6,119 bases of DNA, from contig JAPLDV010000745.1 in assembly GCA_026391235.1 (NCBI GenBank), positions 1 to 6,119 on the forward strand. The letters run 5' to 3'. Under the pieces are notes generated by a model. The model worked only from the letters and a program-made list of their open reading frames with translations. It was not told the origin of the DNA and searched no databases. Within the stretch, counting starts at the first letter, position 1. Every line of letters starts with the position of its first letter. Shown here piece after piece: positions 1-6,119 of this stretch. Source of the DNA: Bacteroidia bacterium. GTDB taxonomy: Bacteria; Bacteroidota; Bacteroidia; Bacteroidales; UBA12481. The position numbers were made by a program, and so were the translations under genes.

Positions 1-20
1 TTTAATGCCCATTTATTCTT

Positions 21-605
21 ATGGATTCAGTTGACTTGAATATGTCCGAGGATACCGAACCTCAAAAAGATCAGGAAATTCAACAGGCAGAAGGGGTGGA
101 ATCCCCGAAGAGCGAAGGGGTTAAGAGAAAGAAATTTGCAGTCGGCGGACATAAAAAAGAACTCGAAGAGATGGCAAACAAGCTTATCGAAATGAATGAT
201 AAGTATTTGCGTTTATCAGCAGAGTTCGACAATTATCGGAAGCGGACATTAAAAGAAAAGATGGATCTCACCAAAATGGGTGGGGAAAACGTTTTATTGA
301 AATTACTTCCCGTAGTTGACAACCTCGAAAGGGCTCTCCAATCGATCAGGGAAACGAGTGATATTGATTCAGTTAAACTGGGCGTTGAACTTATTTATAC
401 TAATTTTCGGGATTTCCTGAAACAGAATGACATTCAAGAGATTGATTGTCTGAATCAGGATTTTAACAGCGATATTCACGAAGCGCTTACAAAGATTCCT
501 GCACCAAATCCAGAACAAAAGGGTAAGGTTGTTGACATTATTGAAAAAGGATACTATCTGCATGACCGTGTTATCCGGTTTGCCAGAGTAGTTGTAGGAG
601 ATTGA
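21..605 (+). CDS. grpE: GrpE, nucleotide exchange factor for DnaK
   Basis: This is a cytosolic co-chaperone that releases ADP from DnaK so that the Hsp70 folding cycle can continue. The 194-residue length is normal for the family. The first ~40 residues are acidic and low in complexity, as expected for the disordered GrpE tail. A long helix or coiled coil follows at about 43-90, containing the family-typical LSAEFDNYRKRT stretch. Next come the LLPVVDNLERAL segment (about 94-107) and a C-terminal beta domain ending in GYYLHDRVIRFARVVVGD. The usual Pro after VIR in that signature is Phe here, a mild change. An in-frame ATG at base 42 (Met8) is an alternative start; I kept the upstream ATG because neither has a clear ribosome binding site. 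dnaJ starts 18 bases downstream, so the two very likely share a transcript. The promoter, if present, lies outside or at the left edge of the window. Confidence 0.96.
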   Translation: MDSVDLNMSEDTEPQKDQEIQQAEGVESPKSEGVKRKKFAVGGHKKELEEMANKLIEMNDKYLRLSAEFDNYRKRTLKEKMDLTKMGGENVLLKLLPVVDNLERALQSIRETSDIDSVKLGVELIYTNFRDFLKQNDIQEIDCLNQDFNSDIHEALTKIPAPNPEQKGKVVDIIEKGYYLHDRVIRFARVVVGD

Positions 606-623
606 TGCCGAACAAAAGGAAAC

Positions 624-1769
624 ATGACAAAAAGAGATTACTACGAAATACTCGGCATTTCAAAGAGTGCCTCTCCAGAGGAGATAAAAAAGGCTTATCG
701 TCAGCAGGCAATGAAATGGCATCCGGATAAAAACCCCGGGAACAAGGATGCTGAAGATAAATTTAAAGAAGCTGCCGAAGCCTACGATGTTTTATCCGAT
801 TCCGATAAAAAGGCGCGTTACGATCAATACGGGCATGCCGGGCTGGGCAACGGCGGTGGAGGCTTTGGGGCAGGCGGGATGAATATGGATGATATTTTCT
901 CCCATTTTGGAGATATTTTCAGTGATATGGGCTTTGGTGGATTTGGCAATTCTTCGAGGGGACGCCAAAGGCATGTAAACCAGGGCACAAACCTCCGGGT
1001 TAAGGTTAAGCTTACACTGGAAGAGATTGTTAAAGGTGCTGAGAAAAAGATCAAGGTAAATAAATATGTACCATGCGATTCCTGCAATGCGACCGGTGCT
1101 GCCAATGGGTCGTCCTATTCCACCTGTTCTACCTGCAATGGCAGGGGGCAGGTTACCCGCGTTGCACATACCATTCTGGGCCAGATGCAGACTACATCGG
1201 TTTGCCCTGCTTGCGGCGGTGAAGGGAAAATCATTACCCAAAAATGTACCTCCTGCTACGGTGAGGGAATTCTTAAGGGTGAAGAAGTAATAAAAATCAC
1301 CATCCCGGCCGGTGTTCAGGAGGGAATGCAGCTATCGATGAGCGGCAAAGGAAATGCTGCCCGCAGAGGCGGAAATAACGGTGACCTGCTGATTATGGTT
1401 GAGGAAGCTGAACACCCCGATCTAACCCGCGATGGCAACGACCTTGTATATAACCTTTTCGTTTCTATTCCGGATGCTACGCTCGGTTCTGCTGTTGAAA
1501 TCCCTACAGTTGATGGCAAAGTGAAGGTAAAGATCGAACCCGGAACCCAGCCAGGAAAAATATTAAGGCTCAGGGGTAAAGGAATACCCGACCTGAACGG
1601 TTATGGTAAAGGCGACCTTTTGGTCAGGATCAATGTCTGGATCCCCAAAACGATGTCGAAAGAGGAGAGGCGGATTGTTGAGGAGCTTGGCAAATCTTCG
1701 AATTTTACGCCAAATCCAACGGCTGCTGAGAAAAATGTGTTTCGCCGGATGAAGGAGATGTTCGATTAA
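624..1769 (+). CDS. dnaJ: DnaJ, Hsp40 co-chaperone
   Basis: DnaJ delivers unfolded clients to DnaK and stimulates its ATPase. The 381-residue protein has the full class I (type A) architecture. The J-domain (about 1-70) carries the essential HPD motif at 33-35. A Gly/Phe-rich linker spans about 74-118. The zinc-binding region (about 151-215) has four Cys pairs, C151/C154, C168/C171, C194/C197 and C208/C211. In the family these form two zinc sites, pairs 1+4 and 2+3. The C-terminal client-binding beta domains and dimerisation tail follow. The first zinc repeat reads CDSCNATG, so the first Gly of CxxCxGxG is Ala, while all eight Cys are intact. The start is chosen because [12 protein letters not shown] is the canonical N-terminus; a purine-rich AAAAGGA ends 3 bases before it. 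It follows grpE closely, and an 82-base gap separates it from the next gene. Confidence 0.97.
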
Positions 1770-1851
1770 TCCGGTATTGTAACAAATGATAGCATCCTTT
1801 GTCTTATTGACCGGAACATAAACATTAAACAAAGTCACAAATAAGATTCTT

Positions 1852-3822
1852 ATGAACAACTTTCTGACTGCCAGCAATGTAGTCAAACAATTTGCAAATC
1901 ATCTGGCATTGGACAAGGTGAGTATTGATGTTCCCGAAGGGAGCATTTTCGGGTTGCTGGGTCCAAACGGAGCGGGGAAAACAACTCTGATCCGGATCAT
2001 TACCCAGATTACAGCACCCGATGAGGGTCAGGTCCAGTTCCGCGGTAAAAAAATGACCATGGAAGATGTGTATCATATCGGTTATCTTCCGGAAGAACGT
2101 GGTTTATACAAGAAAATGAAAGTTGGCGAACAGGCTCTATACCTGGTTCAGCTGAAAGGCATGTCGAGGACCGATGGACTTAAAAAGCTGAAGTACTGGT
2201 TTGAGAAGTTCGAAATTCAAACCTGGTGGGATAAAAAGGTTGAAGAGCTATCAAAAGGAATGGCCCAAAAGGTTCAATTCATTGTAACTGTTTTGCATGA
2301 CCCGAAACTGCTGATCTTTGATGAACCTTTTACCGGATTCGACCCGATCAATACTAACCTGGTTAAGAATGAGATTCTGCGGCTCAGGGATAACGGTGCA
2401 ACCATCGTTTTTTCCACACATATCATGGCCTCTGTTGAGGAACTCTGTGACCATATTGCCCTCATCGACAAAGGGAAGACCATCCTGGACGGTAATATTG
2501 ACGAAGTCAGGGCACGATTTAAGCCTGACACCTATGAATTGAAATTTAAAGGTGATACTCATAACCTTCGGGATGCGCTTGATTCCGGGATTGAAATACT
2601 GGAAGAACCTACGCGTGGAGGTGTTGGTCACCTCATTCTCAAGCAGCAACGACGGATGCCGGTAAGAGAAATGGTAACAGCCATTAATTCTACAGTAGAT
2701 ATCATTTCATTTGAAGAGGTAATCCCAAGCATGAATGACATCTTCATTTTTAATAAAAGCGGTTATTATGCAATCCTCTATATACCTGAGAATGTTCTGA
2801 TTTCAAGCAAAGTACAGCTCTATTCGAACCAGCAGACAACAGTCGGGGTTAATGAGCATATAGTTAAGGCTTTAGATGGATTTTTTACTAATATCAAGCT
2901 AAAGAATGAAAATGTTCCAATGGATATCATGAAACGCATAGCCACCAATATTAATATTGACACCATTCAGTGGACCAGTACCGGGGAAGAGAAATCCGGA
3001 TCAGCTGAAATCGTTTTGTTAATTGGCTACATATCTGGTTTTATGATGTATATGTTTATTTTCATGTTCGGTGCCCAGGTTATGCGCGGTGTGATGGAAG
3101 AAAAATCCAACCGGATCGTGGAAGTAATCATATCCTCTATCAAGCCATTTCAACTGATGATGGGTAAGGTTGTCGGGATTGCCTTTGTTGGATTAACGCA
3201 GTTCGTTATCTGGATTGCGCTGACATTTGGGATTTTCTATGGAGCCAAATTTGTCCTTCTGGAGAAATCAGTCAGTAAACCAACAACATCGGTCGCCACG
3301 AATATTATGGAAAAGGGAGATACCGGAATGGCACAGGCCGCCAACACCGGCCAATATGAAGAGATGTTCAAGCAGATCGCCGGTAAATTCTCAGCAGTTA
3401 ATTTCCCGCTGATCCTTGGATGTTTCCTGTTTTTCTTCATCGGTGGGTACCTCCTGTATGCATCCCTCTTTGCTTCAGTAGGATCAGCCGTTGATAATGA
3501 TACTGATACGCAGCAATTTATGCTTCCGATCACCATACCCATAATTCTGGGACTATTTGTCATGATGAATGCCATGCAATCCCCAAACAGCAGTATAGCG
3601 GTCATATTCTCTCTGATACCCCTTACCTCCCCGATTGTCATGATGGCCCGTGTTCCCTATGGAGTTCCTTACTGGCAACTGGGTTTATCCGCGTTTTTCC
3701 TGATCATTACCTTTATCGGAACCATCTGGATGGCAGGCAAAATTTACCGCACCGGGATTCTGATGTATGGGAAAAAAGCAAGTTACGGCGAACTTTGGAA
3801 GTGGTTAAAGTATAAGAACTGA
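1852..3822 (+). CDS. ABC exporter, ATPase and permease joined in one frame; probable deletion fusion
   Basis: The single 656-residue frame holds two parts that are normally separate proteins. Residues 1-~299 are a NatA/YhaQ-like ATPase: Walker A GPNGAGKTT (37-45), YLPEERGLY in the Q-loop region (78-86), signature LSKGM (133-137), Walker B LLIFDE (153-158), D-loop GFDP (162-165), switch His190, and a DUF4162-like C-terminal domain ending in PSMNDIFI. From about residue 300 it continues as a NatB/YhaP-like ABC-2 permease: an extracytoplasmic segment (~300-386) and hydrophobic helices at about 387-411, 440-468, 517-548, 557-577, 583-603 and 609-632. Between the first two is the coupling segment EEKSNRIVEV (416-425). 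The permease N-terminus with its first membrane helix is absent, as are the ATPase stop and the permease start. The family exports small solutes such as Na+ or drugs, but the substrate here is unknown. The product may not be functional. The stop overlaps the next gene's start. Confidence 0.85.
   Translation: MNNFLTASNVVKQFANHLALDKVSIDVPEGSIFGLLGPNGAGKTTLIRIITQITAPDEGQVQFRGKKMTMEDVYHIGYLPEERGLYKKMKVGEQALYLVQLKGMSRTDGLKKLKYWFEKFEIQTWWDKKVEELSKGMAQKVQFIVTVLHDPKLLIFDEPFTGFDPINTNLVKNEILRLRDNGATIVFSTHIMASVEELCDHIALIDKGKTILDGNIDEVRARFKPDTYELKFKGDTHNLRDALDSGIEILEEPTRGGVGHLILKQQRRMPVREMVTAINSTVDIISFEEVIPSMNDIFIFNKSGYYAILYIPENVLISSKVQLYSNQQTTVGVNEHIVKALDGFFTNIKLKNENVPMDIMKRIATNINIDTIQWTSTGEEKSGSAEIVLLIGYISGFMMYMFIFMFGAQVMRGVMEEKSNRIVEVIISSIKPFQLMMGKVVGIAFVGLTQFVIWIALTFGIFYGAKFVLLEKSVSKPTTSVATNIMEKGDTGMAQAANTGQYEEMFKQIAGKFSAVNFPLILGCFLFFFIGGYLLYASLFASVGSAVDNDTDTQQFMLPITIPIILGLFVMMNAMQSPNSSIAVIFSLIPLTSPIVMMARVPYGVPYWQLGLSAFFLIITFIGTIWMAGKIYRTGILMYGKKASYGELWKWLKYKN
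2746..2763 (+). other. Putative in-frame deletion junction between ABC ATPase and permease
   Basis: The last residues that look like ATPase are PSMNDIFI (292-299, ending at base 2748). In Bacteroidota relatives as I recall them, the protein ends a few residues after this motif. The next residues, FNKSGYYAILYIPEN, look like the middle of the permease's first extracytoplasmic loop, roughly 100 residues after its usual start. There is no stop, start or transmembrane helix between the two parts. From recalled family lengths I estimate that a few hundred bases are missing; this is not a measurement. The exact breakpoint can only be placed within a few codons. Confidence 0.7.
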
Positions 3823-4973
3823 TGGCGGCGATTCTAGTTATTGATGATGAGCGGAGTATCCGCAATACCCTGAAGGAGGTACTCGAATATGAGAACCATC
3901 AGATAGATCTGGCAGAGGATGGTGTGATTGGTTTGGGAATGATCAAAGAGAATCATTATGATATTGTTCTCTGCGACATTAAGATGCCGAAGATGGATGG
4001 TCTCGAGGTGCTGGAAAAGATTTTCCAGATCACCGGTGATGTTCAGGTAATCATGATATCCGGCCATGGCACGGTAGATGCTGCTGTGGAAGCCATCAAG
4101 AAAGGGGCTTATGATTTCATTGAAAAACCGCTGGATCTGAACCGGTTGCTGGTCACGATCCTGAATGCCATGGATAAAACCACCCTGATCAGTGAAACCC
4201 GGACCCTGAAAAAGAAGGTAGCCAGGAATTATGAAATGATCGGGGAATCAGGTCCGATGAAAAAGATCAGGGAGATGATTGACCGCGTGGCGCCGACCGA
4301 TGCAAGGGTTTTGATCACCGGCTCCAACGGAACGGGGAAAGAATTGGTGGCCCGTCAGCTTCATGATCAGAGTAATCGCACCGGAGGGCAATTTGTTGAG
4401 GTCAACTGTGCGGCAATCCCATCGGAATTAATTGAGAGTGAACTGTTTGGCCACGAGAAAGGATCCTTCACCTCTGCCATCAAGCAGCGGAAAGGGAAAT
4501 TCGAACTGGCCGATAAAGGGACACTTTTCCTGGACGAGATCGGCGACATGAGCCTATCAGCCCAAGCGAAGGTTCTCAGGGCACTGCAGGAGGGCCGGAT
4601 TACAAGGGTTGGAGGAGATAAGGATATCGCGGTGGACGTCAGGGTGATAGCCGCAACCAATAAAAATCTAAAAGAAGAAATCGTTGAAAGCCGGTTCCGG
4701 GAAGACCTTTACCATCGTCTGGGGGTCATTATAATAAATGTTCCGGCGCTGAGGGACCGGGCAGATGACATCCCGCTTTTAGCAACTCATTTTATCGACC
4801 AGGTATGTTCGGAGATGGGAATGCCGCCGAAGAGCATTGATGATGATGCCATTGAGGAGCTCATGAAGCTTCCTTGGACCGGCAACATCCGGGAGTTCAG
4901 GAATGTGATCGAGCGGTTGATTATTCTTGGAGGGCAGGGAATAACCGGCGAAGATGTACGGGTTTTTGCCTGA
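3822..4973 (+). CDS. Sigma-54-type response regulator (receiver plus AAA+), no DNA-binding domain
   Basis: This is an NtrC-like two-component response regulator of 383 residues. The receiver domain (about 1-120) has the acidic pair D8/D9, phospho-acceptor D52 in LCDIKMPKMDG, S80 and K102. The AAA+ sigma-54 activator domain (about 138-370) has Walker A GSNGTGKE (167-174), Walker B GTLFLDE (233-239), the arginine-finger region FREDLYHRL (292-300) and the sensor II-type WTGNIREFRN (352-361). The sigma-54 contact loop reads GSFTSA (214-219) instead of GAFTGA. The protein ends just after the AAA+ domain, so the Fis-type helix-turn-helix that brings NtrC proteins to about 450-470 residues is missing. 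My recollection is that similar HTH-less regulators of about 385-390 residues are common in Bacteroidota, so this is probably native. Its ATG overlaps the ABC gene stop (TGATG), which suggests translational coupling. No histidine kinase lies in the window. Confidence 0.93.
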   Translation: MAAILVIDDERSIRNTLKEVLEYENHQIDLAEDGVIGLGMIKENHYDIVLCDIKMPKMDGLEVLEKIFQITGDVQVIMISGHGTVDAAVEAIKKGAYDFIEKPLDLNRLLVTILNAMDKTTLISETRTLKKKVARNYEMIGESGPMKKIREMIDRVAPTDARVLITGSNGTGKELVARQLHDQSNRTGGQFVEVNCAAIPSELIESELFGHEKGSFTSAIKQRKGKFELADKGTLFLDEIGDMSLSAQAKVLRALQEGRITRVGGDKDIAVDVRVIAATNKNLKEEIVESRFREDLYHRLGVIIINVPALRDRADDIPLLATHFIDQVCSEMGMPPKSIDDDAIEELMKLPWTGNIREFRNVIERLIILGGQGITGEDVRVFA

Positions 4974-4996
4974 TCAGATAAGGTTTGCTACTTTTG
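4965..4996 (+). promoter_or_regulatory. Bacteroidota-type promoter for coaD
   Basis: A -33 box TTTG (4965-4968, within TTTTTG) is followed after exactly 20 bases by a -7 box TACTTTTG (4989-4996). This matches TAnnTTTG, the consensus known for the primary sigma factor of Bacteroides. The expected start of transcription is near base 5000, giving coaD a leader of only about 12-17 bases. The -33 box lies inside the last codons of the response regulator gene. The element is inferred from pattern only. Confidence 0.6.
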
Positions 4997-5023
4997 CATA
5001 AATAACTCGTTGGTTATGCAAAA
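4992..5023. repeat. Perfect 10-bp inverted repeat spanning the coaD start
   Basis: The left arm TTTTGCATAA (4992-5001) and right arm TTATGCAAAA (5014-5023) are exact reverse complements, with a 12-base loop between them. The left arm contains the TTTG of the predicted -7 box, and the right arm contains the coaD ATG (5016-5018). It could be a regulator binding site or an RNA hairpin hiding the start codon in read-through transcripts. It has no long T-run like a terminator: A-residues, not T, follow the right arm on the coding strand. The role is unproven. Confidence 0.55.
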
Positions 5024-5480
5024 AATTGCCGTTTTCCCGGGATCTTTTGATCCGTTTACCAAAGGACATGAGAATGTGATCACCAGGGCGTTGCCCTTGT
5101 TCGACAAGATATATATCGCAATAGGCCACAATTCGGAGAAGAAGAGTTTCTTTACACTCGACCAGCGGCTGAGAATGATCGGGAAGTTTTATCAGGAAGA
5201 GCCCAGGATAGTAATGGACTATTATGAAGGCCTTACGGTCGACTATTGCAAAAAGGTTGGAGCACAATATTTATTAAGGGGATTACGGACGTCTGCTGAT
5301 TTTGAGTTTGAGCGGTCGATTGCGCAGATCAATCGTAAGATGAATCCTGAAGTGGAGACGGTTTTTATCCTGGCGGTCCCGGAATTTGCCCCGGTGAATT
5401 CAACAATAATCCGTGAAATTCTTAGATACGGCGGTGATGCCAGTCAGTTCCTGCCCGACAAAATGGTTATAGAGGATTAA
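5016..5480 (+). CDS. coaD: Phosphopantetheine adenylyltransferase
   Basis: The enzyme transfers AMP from ATP to 4'-phosphopantetheine, giving dephospho-CoA and pyrophosphate, the penultimate step of coenzyme A synthesis in the cytosol. From the ATG at 5016 the protein has 154 residues, close to the usual ~160. It starts MQKIAVFPGSFDPFTKGHEN, the standard nucleotidyltransferase N-terminus with the (T/H)xGH motif as TKGH (15-18). It also has RGLRTSADFEFE (88-99) and the second signature NSTIIRE (128-134), which corresponds to the ISST-type ATP-binding motif. The frame can be read from a TTG at 5010, adding two residues (MV). I prefer the ATG because it matches the conserved family start and TTG is rare. 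It has its own predicted promoter, and its last bases overlap the convergent Nudix gene. Confidence 0.96.
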   Translation: MQKIAVFPGSFDPFTKGHENVITRALPLFDKIYIAIGHNSEKKSFFTLDQRLRMIGKFYQEEPRIVMDYYEGLTVDYCKKVGAQYLLRGLRTSADFEFERSIAQINRKMNPEVETVFILAVPEFAPVNSTIIREILRYGGDASQFLPDKMVIED

Positions 5481-6115
5481 TCTTGCCGGTTTTCGCCGGT
5501 ATTCCAGGAAACATCTCCAATGAGCTCAGCAATTGATCGGTATGTATTTTCAAGAACCATATCGAATTGCGATGGGACAAGCCAGCTTGCTTCGGTGATA
5601 CCTTCCTCGGTTTGAGGTTTTGTAAAGAGATTCCCGGTATAATCCATGGCAAACCACCAGGTTTTTTTCAGGACCCTGTTGCCTTCGAGTTTATAGGTAT
5701 GATAGGTAGATGGTAGTGCGTTATTAATTTTCAAATCCGCGATTCCGCATTCTTCCCTGACTTCACGTAATGCGGCCAACTCAGGAGATTCGCCCTTTTC
5801 GATTTTTCCCTTCGGCAGGTCCCATTTCCCGAATCTTTTGATAAACAGATATTTCCCTGATGGATGGCGCACGATTCCGCCTGCCGCTTCGATAATCTGA
5901 TAGAAGCTTATGAACATTTTGAAGAAATCTTCCGGATCCTTATGGCAAACGCAATAGGTTTGAATGCCCGAATCCTCAAATTGGGCGATCAGTTCTCCCA
6001 CCGATTTCCGGTCGGGATGGTCAATGATTTCTTTGCAAACCCCGCATATTGCCTCATCAGCGGTGGAAATCGACAGGAGCCAGTCGTTGAAAAAAACTTT
6101 ATACCTTTGAATCAT
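5477..6115 (-). CDS. Nudix hydrolase with an extra N-terminal domain
   Basis: Nudix enzymes hydrolyse nucleoside diphosphates linked to another moiety. The substrate cannot be read from this sequence. The 212-residue protein has a complete Nudix box at 103-125, GKIEKGESPELAALREVREECGI, matching GX5EX7REUXEEXGU, with metal-binding glutamates at 118, 121 and 122. It is preceded by the typical AAGGIVRHPSGKYLFIKRFGKWDLPKG strand-loop region (78-102). Residues 1-~75 form an additional domain that I cannot name. It carries two close Cys pairs, C24xxC27 and C55xC57. Bacteroidota have related Nudix proteins with a similar N-terminal extension (from memory). The start ATG lies 4 bases from the window's right edge. 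MIQRYKVFFND looks like a natural N-terminus, but a longer start outside the window cannot be excluded. The gene is convergent with coaD. Confidence 0.9.
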   Translation of the reverse strand: MIQRYKVFFNDWLLSISTADEAICGVCKEIIDHPDRKSVGELIAQFEDSGIQTYCVCHKDPEDFFKMFISFYQIIEAAGGIVRHPSGKYLFIKRFGKWDLPKGKIEKGESPELAALREVREECGIADLKINNALPSTYHTYKLEGNRVLKKTWWFAMDYTGNLFTKPQTEEGITEASWLVPSQFDMVLENTYRSIAELIGDVSWNTGENRQD

Positions 6116-6119
6116 GATG

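What the first reader, a model, noticed from the sequence alone, without database searches (positions are those of the whole stretch)
1852..3822. ABC exporter ATPase and permease fused in frame by an apparent deletion
The ATPase C-terminal motif PSMNDIFI runs directly into FNKSGYYAILYIPEN, which belongs to the middle of the partner permease. The ATPase stop, the spacer and about the first 100 residues of the permease, including membrane helix 1, are missing, yet the frame is kept for 656 residues and no other damage is visible. It may be a recent deletion, a real but altered single-chain half-transporter, or an assembly or consensus error.
Basis: partly seen in the sequence, partly recalled or inferred. 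Interest (0 to 1): 0.7.

Follow-up and report, generated by a model that had tools for sequence, protein, structure and literature searches.

The report
ABC exporter genes fused by deletion
Two neighbouring genes for the two halves of a bacterial export pump have been run together by one small clean deletion that also removed a membrane segment, most likely a one-off mutation (or an assembly error) that breaks the pump rather than a new kind of pump.

Summary
The 656-codon frame at 1852-3822 joins residues 1-299 of an ABC-2 exporter ATPase to residues 89-445 of its partner permease. The window is colinear with a related Bacteroidota MAG contig (L001, about 84% identical DNA) except for one missing 315-bp block: the ATPase's last 10 codons, its stop, an 18-bp spacer and the permease's first 88 codons (membrane helix 1 and the start of the extracellular domain). 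The flanking genes show no damage. It is not a conserved architecture: 0 of 76 related loci holding both halves are fused, and 0 of 34 loci (partly the same ones) chosen because both genes share a frame; in searches of 60 and 393 genomes no listed match spans both halves. Seven singleton database proteins also join an ATPase to such a permease, at other junctions; one (P0042) has also lost part of helix 1. The junction shows about 1 nt of shared sequence, so collapse of a repeat during assembly is unlikely, but without reads a real deletion cannot be told from a chimera. With helix 1 gone, the remaining helices start on the wrong side of the membrane, so the product is most likely not a working exporter. 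Ordinary; low interest.

The parts
1852..2748 (+). ATPase half: residues 1-299 of an ABC-2 exporter ATPase; last 10 residues and stop of the intact gene missing
   Evidence: Pfam ABC_tran and DrrA1-3_C; GPNGAGKT at 37, LSKGM at 133, LLIFDEP at 153, FSTH at 187; 95% identical to the L001 ATPase
2746..2751 (+). fusion junction; break at 2747/2748 or 2748/2749, about 1 nt shared by the two ends
   Evidence: register set by conserved codons against L001-L005; blastn pieces end or start at 2747/2748 and 2748/2755
2749..3819 (+). permease half: residues 89-445 of the partner permease (helices 2-6 and the later part of the extracellular domain); helix 1 missing
   Evidence: ABC2_membrane_3 profile 60-345 of 347; 88% identical to the L001 permease; model and hydropathy of intact P0013
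3820..3822 (+). stop codon of the fused frame, overlapping the start of the regulator gene
   Evidence: the ORF listing
21..605 (+). grpE, intact (194 aa, as in L001)
624..1769 (+). dnaJ, intact (381 aa, as in L001)
3822..4973 (+). sigma-54-dependent response regulator, intact (383 aa, as in L001)
5016..5480 (+). coaD-like cytidylyltransferase-family gene, intact (154 aa from this ATG, as in L001)
5477..6115 (-). NUDIX hydrolase gene; frame open to the window edge

Best explanation
In the ancestor the ATPase and permease genes of a two-gene ABC-2 exporter lay in one frame, separated by one stop and an 18-bp spacer, as in L001 today. One deletion of 315 bp (105 codons), joining ends with almost no shared sequence, removed the ATPase's last 10 codons, the stop, the spacer and the permease's first 88 codons. 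It left one 656-codon frame: a complete nucleotide-binding domain followed directly by the later part of the permease's extracellular domain and membrane helices 2-6. Shown: the missing block, its length and its content relative to relatives. Inferred: that the deletion is in the organism's DNA, that it is recent, and that the product does not export, because without helix 1 the extracellular remnant and helix 2 begin on the cytosolic side, which conflicts with the permease's topology.
For: One colinear alignment to L001 on both sides (window 1-2748 at 84.06%, 2755-6119 at 83.72%) with only this block missing; 315 bp against both same-frame relatives L001 and L004; single TAA between the two genes in those two genomes; 0 of 76 and 0 of 34 loci fused; no listed match spanning both halves among 60 relatives and 393 genomes of the order (listing of 41 capped); closest separate permease 91% and ATPase 95% identical; flanking genes show no stop or frame break; no shared word over 7 nt within 25 bases of the two ends in four relatives, and no more than random positions 315 bp apart give; junction residues 300-305 of the model have pLDDT below 50.
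Against: No reads are held, so a chimera is not excluded. No second sequence of the same species was found, so neither recurrence nor an intact sibling is known. Lineage-specific changes are too few to show decay or constraint: window branch ATPase 3 N / 1 S and permease 5 N / 5 S, against L001 2 N / 6 S and 15 N / 14 S. Plain hydropathy gives seven segments in P0013 and six in the fusion; the six-helix reading counts segment 368-391 as a re-entrant hairpin, resting on the low-confidence model (two short helices 370-377 and 382-392, mean pLDDT 62) and on recalled knowledge of the ABC-2 fold. P0042 shows that a comparable in-frame fusion exists elsewhere.
Confidence: 0.62

Rival explanations
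1. Assembly, gap-closing or chimeric-read artefact: the organism carries two intact genes and the 315 bp were lost in the sequence record.
For: The join was found only in this window: not among the 354 proteins listed by the three searches, not in the viral contigs (30-mer), not in the best 79 loci of genome contigs although the junction peptide MNDIFIFN was one of six scan patterns. A chance in-frame result has odds of about one in three.
Against: No repeat at the two ends that an assembler could collapse; the rest of the window shows no comparable damage.
Confidence: 0.33
2. A functional single-chain half-transporter: the fused protein still dimerises and exports, with helix 1 dispensable or replaced.
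For: Frame kept, ATPase motifs intact, permease half without stops. Fused NBD-TMD ABC-2 proteins exist, e.g. insect ABCH-9C and plant ABCG25 chains among the fold matches, and the paper PMC4649718 (passages) describes repeated NBD-TMD fusion in eukaryotes. P0042 is an in-frame relative that also lost part of helix 1.
Against: Helix 1 and the first two extracellular strands are gone; positions of the missing stretch are among the invariant columns of 38 permeases (for example R10, E11, Y12, R15, K18, F21, P29, D47, K51); no fused locus among 76 and 34 examined.
Confidence: 0.05

Closest known systems
Two-gene ABC-2 exporter of Bacteroidota (PF00005 + PF13732 ATPase, PF12698 permease), L001/L004 pair
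   Same: Same gene order, 95% and 93% (ATPase) and 88% (permease half) identity
   Different: There the two genes are separate with one TAA between; here 315 bp are missing and they form one frame
Singleton fused database proteins P0030, P0038, P0041, P0042, P0115, P0123, P0203
   Same: An ATPase and an ABC2_membrane_3 stretch in one protein
   Different: Other junctions: permease starts at residue 1, 1, 13, 31, 4, 1, 1 of P0013, here at 89; four of the seven stop before the permease's end; each stands on one contig
Natural NBD-TMD ABC-2 fusions (ABCG/ABCH; bacterial RbbA)
   Same: ATPase before membrane domain on one chain (RbbA domain order recalled)
   Different: Those keep the whole membrane domain (recalled); RbbA model cut-off far from met, 139.7 of 1050 bits
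PDB 2p0s_A, ABC transporter permease protein, putative
   Same: Matches the extracellular domain of intact P0013, residues 49-174
   Different: The fusion lacks the first 40 of those residues (49-88)

Membership tests
ABC_tran / DrrA-type exporter ATPase | ABC_tran domain with Walker A, signature, Walker B and H-loop | tested here: met
   98.4 bits against a cut-off of 25; motifs at 37, 133, 153, 187 (motif names recalled)
ABC_tran / DrrA-type exporter ATPase | DrrA1-3_C C-terminal domain | tested here: met
   50 bits against 27.4, profile 1-78 of 81
NCBIfam drrA TIGR01188 | curated score cut-off | tested here: not met
   181.7 bits against 312.45
GldA TIGR03522 | curated score cut-off | tested here: not met
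   175.3 bits against 402.6
ABC2_membrane_3 permease (PF12698) | Pfam gathering score | tested here: met
   168.9 bits against 31.6
ABC2_membrane_3 permease (PF12698) | complete domain including N-terminal helix 1 | tested here: not met
   profile 60-345 here, 1-345 in P0013; first hydrophobic segment 18-45 of P0013 has no counterpart
RbbA NF033858 | curated score cut-off over two NBDs and the membrane domain | tested here: not met
   139.7 bits against 1050, one stretch 5-232 (domain layout recalled)
Functional exporter | ATP-driven export by a correctly inserted dimer | not testable with these tools
   needs expression and topology assays

The most novel reading that the evidence does not exclude
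The fused protein is a working single-chain half-transporter that does without helix 1, and in-frame ATPase-permease fusions of this exporter family arise repeatedly (P0042 being an independent case that lost part of helix 1).
Probability: 0.05. Interest if true: 0.6.

Novelty: new member of a known kind. Interest (0 to 1): 0.17.

Why it matters
If the deletion is real it is a clear small example of how a two-gene ABC exporter whose genes share a frame can become one chain by a single deletion, and of why such fusions do not spread when a membrane helix goes with them. Gene callers will annotate it as an NBD-TMD half-transporter, so it is a caution for surveys of domain fusions drawn from single metagenome contigs.

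Tried and rejected
A conserved fusion family: rejected; 0 of 76 loci with both halves (of 79 fetched; L031, L050 and L061 lack the permease) are fused, and 0 of 34 same-frame loci.

Joint frames hinted by the open_frame_aa column: these values (655-970) read through a stop; all 34 listed cases other than G001 were fetched and each has a stop between the genes. At least some of the 34 lie on contigs already among the 76 (contig lengths agree, e.g. L104 with L006, L105 with L007), so the two counts are not independent.

Repeat-mediated deletion or repeat collapse: no support; longest shared word within 25 bases of the two ends 5-7 nt in four relatives, with 12 to 84% of 200 random positions doing as well. 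In some searches the L002 and L003 rows were one base out of register; one search corrects this, and the first notebook entry, which gave 315 bp for those two, is corrected in the second (314 bp).

Decay or constraint on the window branch: too few polarised changes to decide.

Another copy of the junction: absent from viral contigs; a search of the literature gave no paper on this kind of fusion in this family (one search returned none, ten listings were seen, and of one paper, PMC4649718, passages). That is not a claim that nothing is in print.

Full report
What is there. The frame 1852-3822 (+) is open for 656 codons. Residues 20-160 match ABC_tran, 214-299 DrrA1-3_C, and 287-628 ABC2_membrane_3 from profile position 60. 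The same permease model is matched from position 1 in an intact relative, P0013. Walker A, signature, Walker B and H-loop words stand at 37, 133, 153 and 187 (names of motifs recalled). PSMNDIFI ends at 299, and KSGYY, at 91 in P0013, is at 302.

What is missing. blastn of the whole window against the loci fetched gives L001 (MAG Porphyromonadaceae PowLak16_MAG2) as colinear in two pieces, window 1-2748 and 2755-6119, at 84.06 and 83.72% identity. Register set by conserved codons gives 315 missing bases against L001 and L004, and 314 against L002, L003 and L005. In L001 the 315 bases are 30 of ATPase coding, 3 of stop, 18 of spacer and 264 of permease coding (gene coordinates 5001-5930 and 5949-7286). 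In L001 and L004 both genes share a frame with one TAA between, so an ancestor of that kind gives an in-frame join; with the spacing of L002, L003 or L005 it would not.

Junction. The left end matches relatives up to 2748, the right end from about 2748, so about one base is shared. No word longer than 7 nt is shared within 25 bases of the two ends in four relatives, no more than random positions give. A repeat-driven deletion, or collapse of a repeat by an assembler, is therefore not supported; end joining without homology, or a chimeric read, remains.

Is the fusion conserved? Of 79 loci from genome contigs, 76 hold both halves and 0 are fused; three lack the permease. One of the six patterns of that scan was the junction peptide itself; 398 stretches encoded relatives and only the best 80 were kept. 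Among 60 relatives of L001's genome, 15 match at 1e-120 and none of the listed matches spans both halves. Among 393 genomes of the order, 292 match at 1e-100; the listing is capped and none of the listed matches spans both halves. The 34 listed cases, besides G001, with a joint frame length of 655 or more were fetched, and every one has a stop between the genes; some lie on contigs already among the 76. The junction 30-mer is absent from the viral contigs.

Proteins elsewhere. The three searches listed 354 proteins in all (each listing shows the best 120 of thousands). Seven hold both an ATPase and a permease stretch: P0030, P0038, P0041, P0042, P0115, P0123, P0203. Their permease part starts at residue 1, 1, 13, 31, 4, 1 and 1 of P0013, never near 89. 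Each is one sequence on one contig. P0030, P0038 and P0042 reach the permease's end; the other four do not. P0042 is the result most against a one-off reading: it is in frame over 656 residues, lacks ATPase positions after 221 and permease positions before 31, thus part of helix 1. The best separate permease is 91% identical; the best ATPase is 95% (L001). The database is clustered at 90%, so an intact sibling of the same species could hide inside a cluster.

Other damage. GrpE, DnaJ, the regulator and CoaD have the same lengths as in L001 (194, 381, 383, 154), and the NUDIX frame is open to the window edge. Changes assigned to the window branch are 3 N / 1 S in the ATPase part and 5 N / 5 S in the permease part, to the L001 branch 2 N / 6 S and 15 N / 14 S. 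These counts are too small to show decay or constraint.

Consequence. P0013 is modelled with helix 19-44 followed by strands 51-57 and 72-76 (mean pLDDT 62, so weak). All of this is missing here. The extracellular domain matches the solved 2p0s_A over residues 49-174; the first 40 of these residues are gone. Hydropathy gives seven segments in P0013 and six in the fusion. I read segment 368-391 as a re-entrant hairpin, because it is modelled as two short helices and because the ABC-2 fold, as I recall it, has six helices with both ends inside; on this reading five remain. The fusion model has pLDDT below 50 at 300-305, and its fold matches are mainly to ATPase subunits with low TM-scores over the whole chain. 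The ATPase must stay in the cytosol, so the extracellular remnant and helix 2 start on the wrong side. The product is most likely inactive as an exporter; this is inference.

Verdict. A single in-frame deletion fusing the two genes is confirmed against relatives. A real, recent, probably inactivating deletion is favoured (0.62), a sequence artefact is next (0.33), and a functional single-chain half-transporter is unlikely (0.05). Interest is low.

Noticed in passing
window 3822-4973: The sigma-54-dependent response regulator shows receiver, AAA+ and lid domains up to residue 372 of 383 and no DNA-binding (HTH) family at E up to 1e-3; the L001 copy has the same length. It may act without binding DNA.
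   Followed up: no
P0042 (database protein, no window coordinates): A relative in which an ATPase without its C-terminal domain is joined in frame to a permease that lacks its first 30 residues; also 656 aa, by coincidence.
   Followed up: partly
P0077 (database protein, no window coordinates): A 404-residue ATPase relative in which a stretch of about 100 residues before and including the Walker B region is repeated in tandem in frame (sequence).
   Followed up: no
L016:2720-5008: The permease frame found starts at the position corresponding to residue 86 of the window's permease half, suggesting a frame break or truncation in that MAG.
   Followed up: no
window 5477-5480: The coaD-like gene and the NUDIX gene on the opposite strand overlap by four bases at their stop codons.
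   Followed up: no
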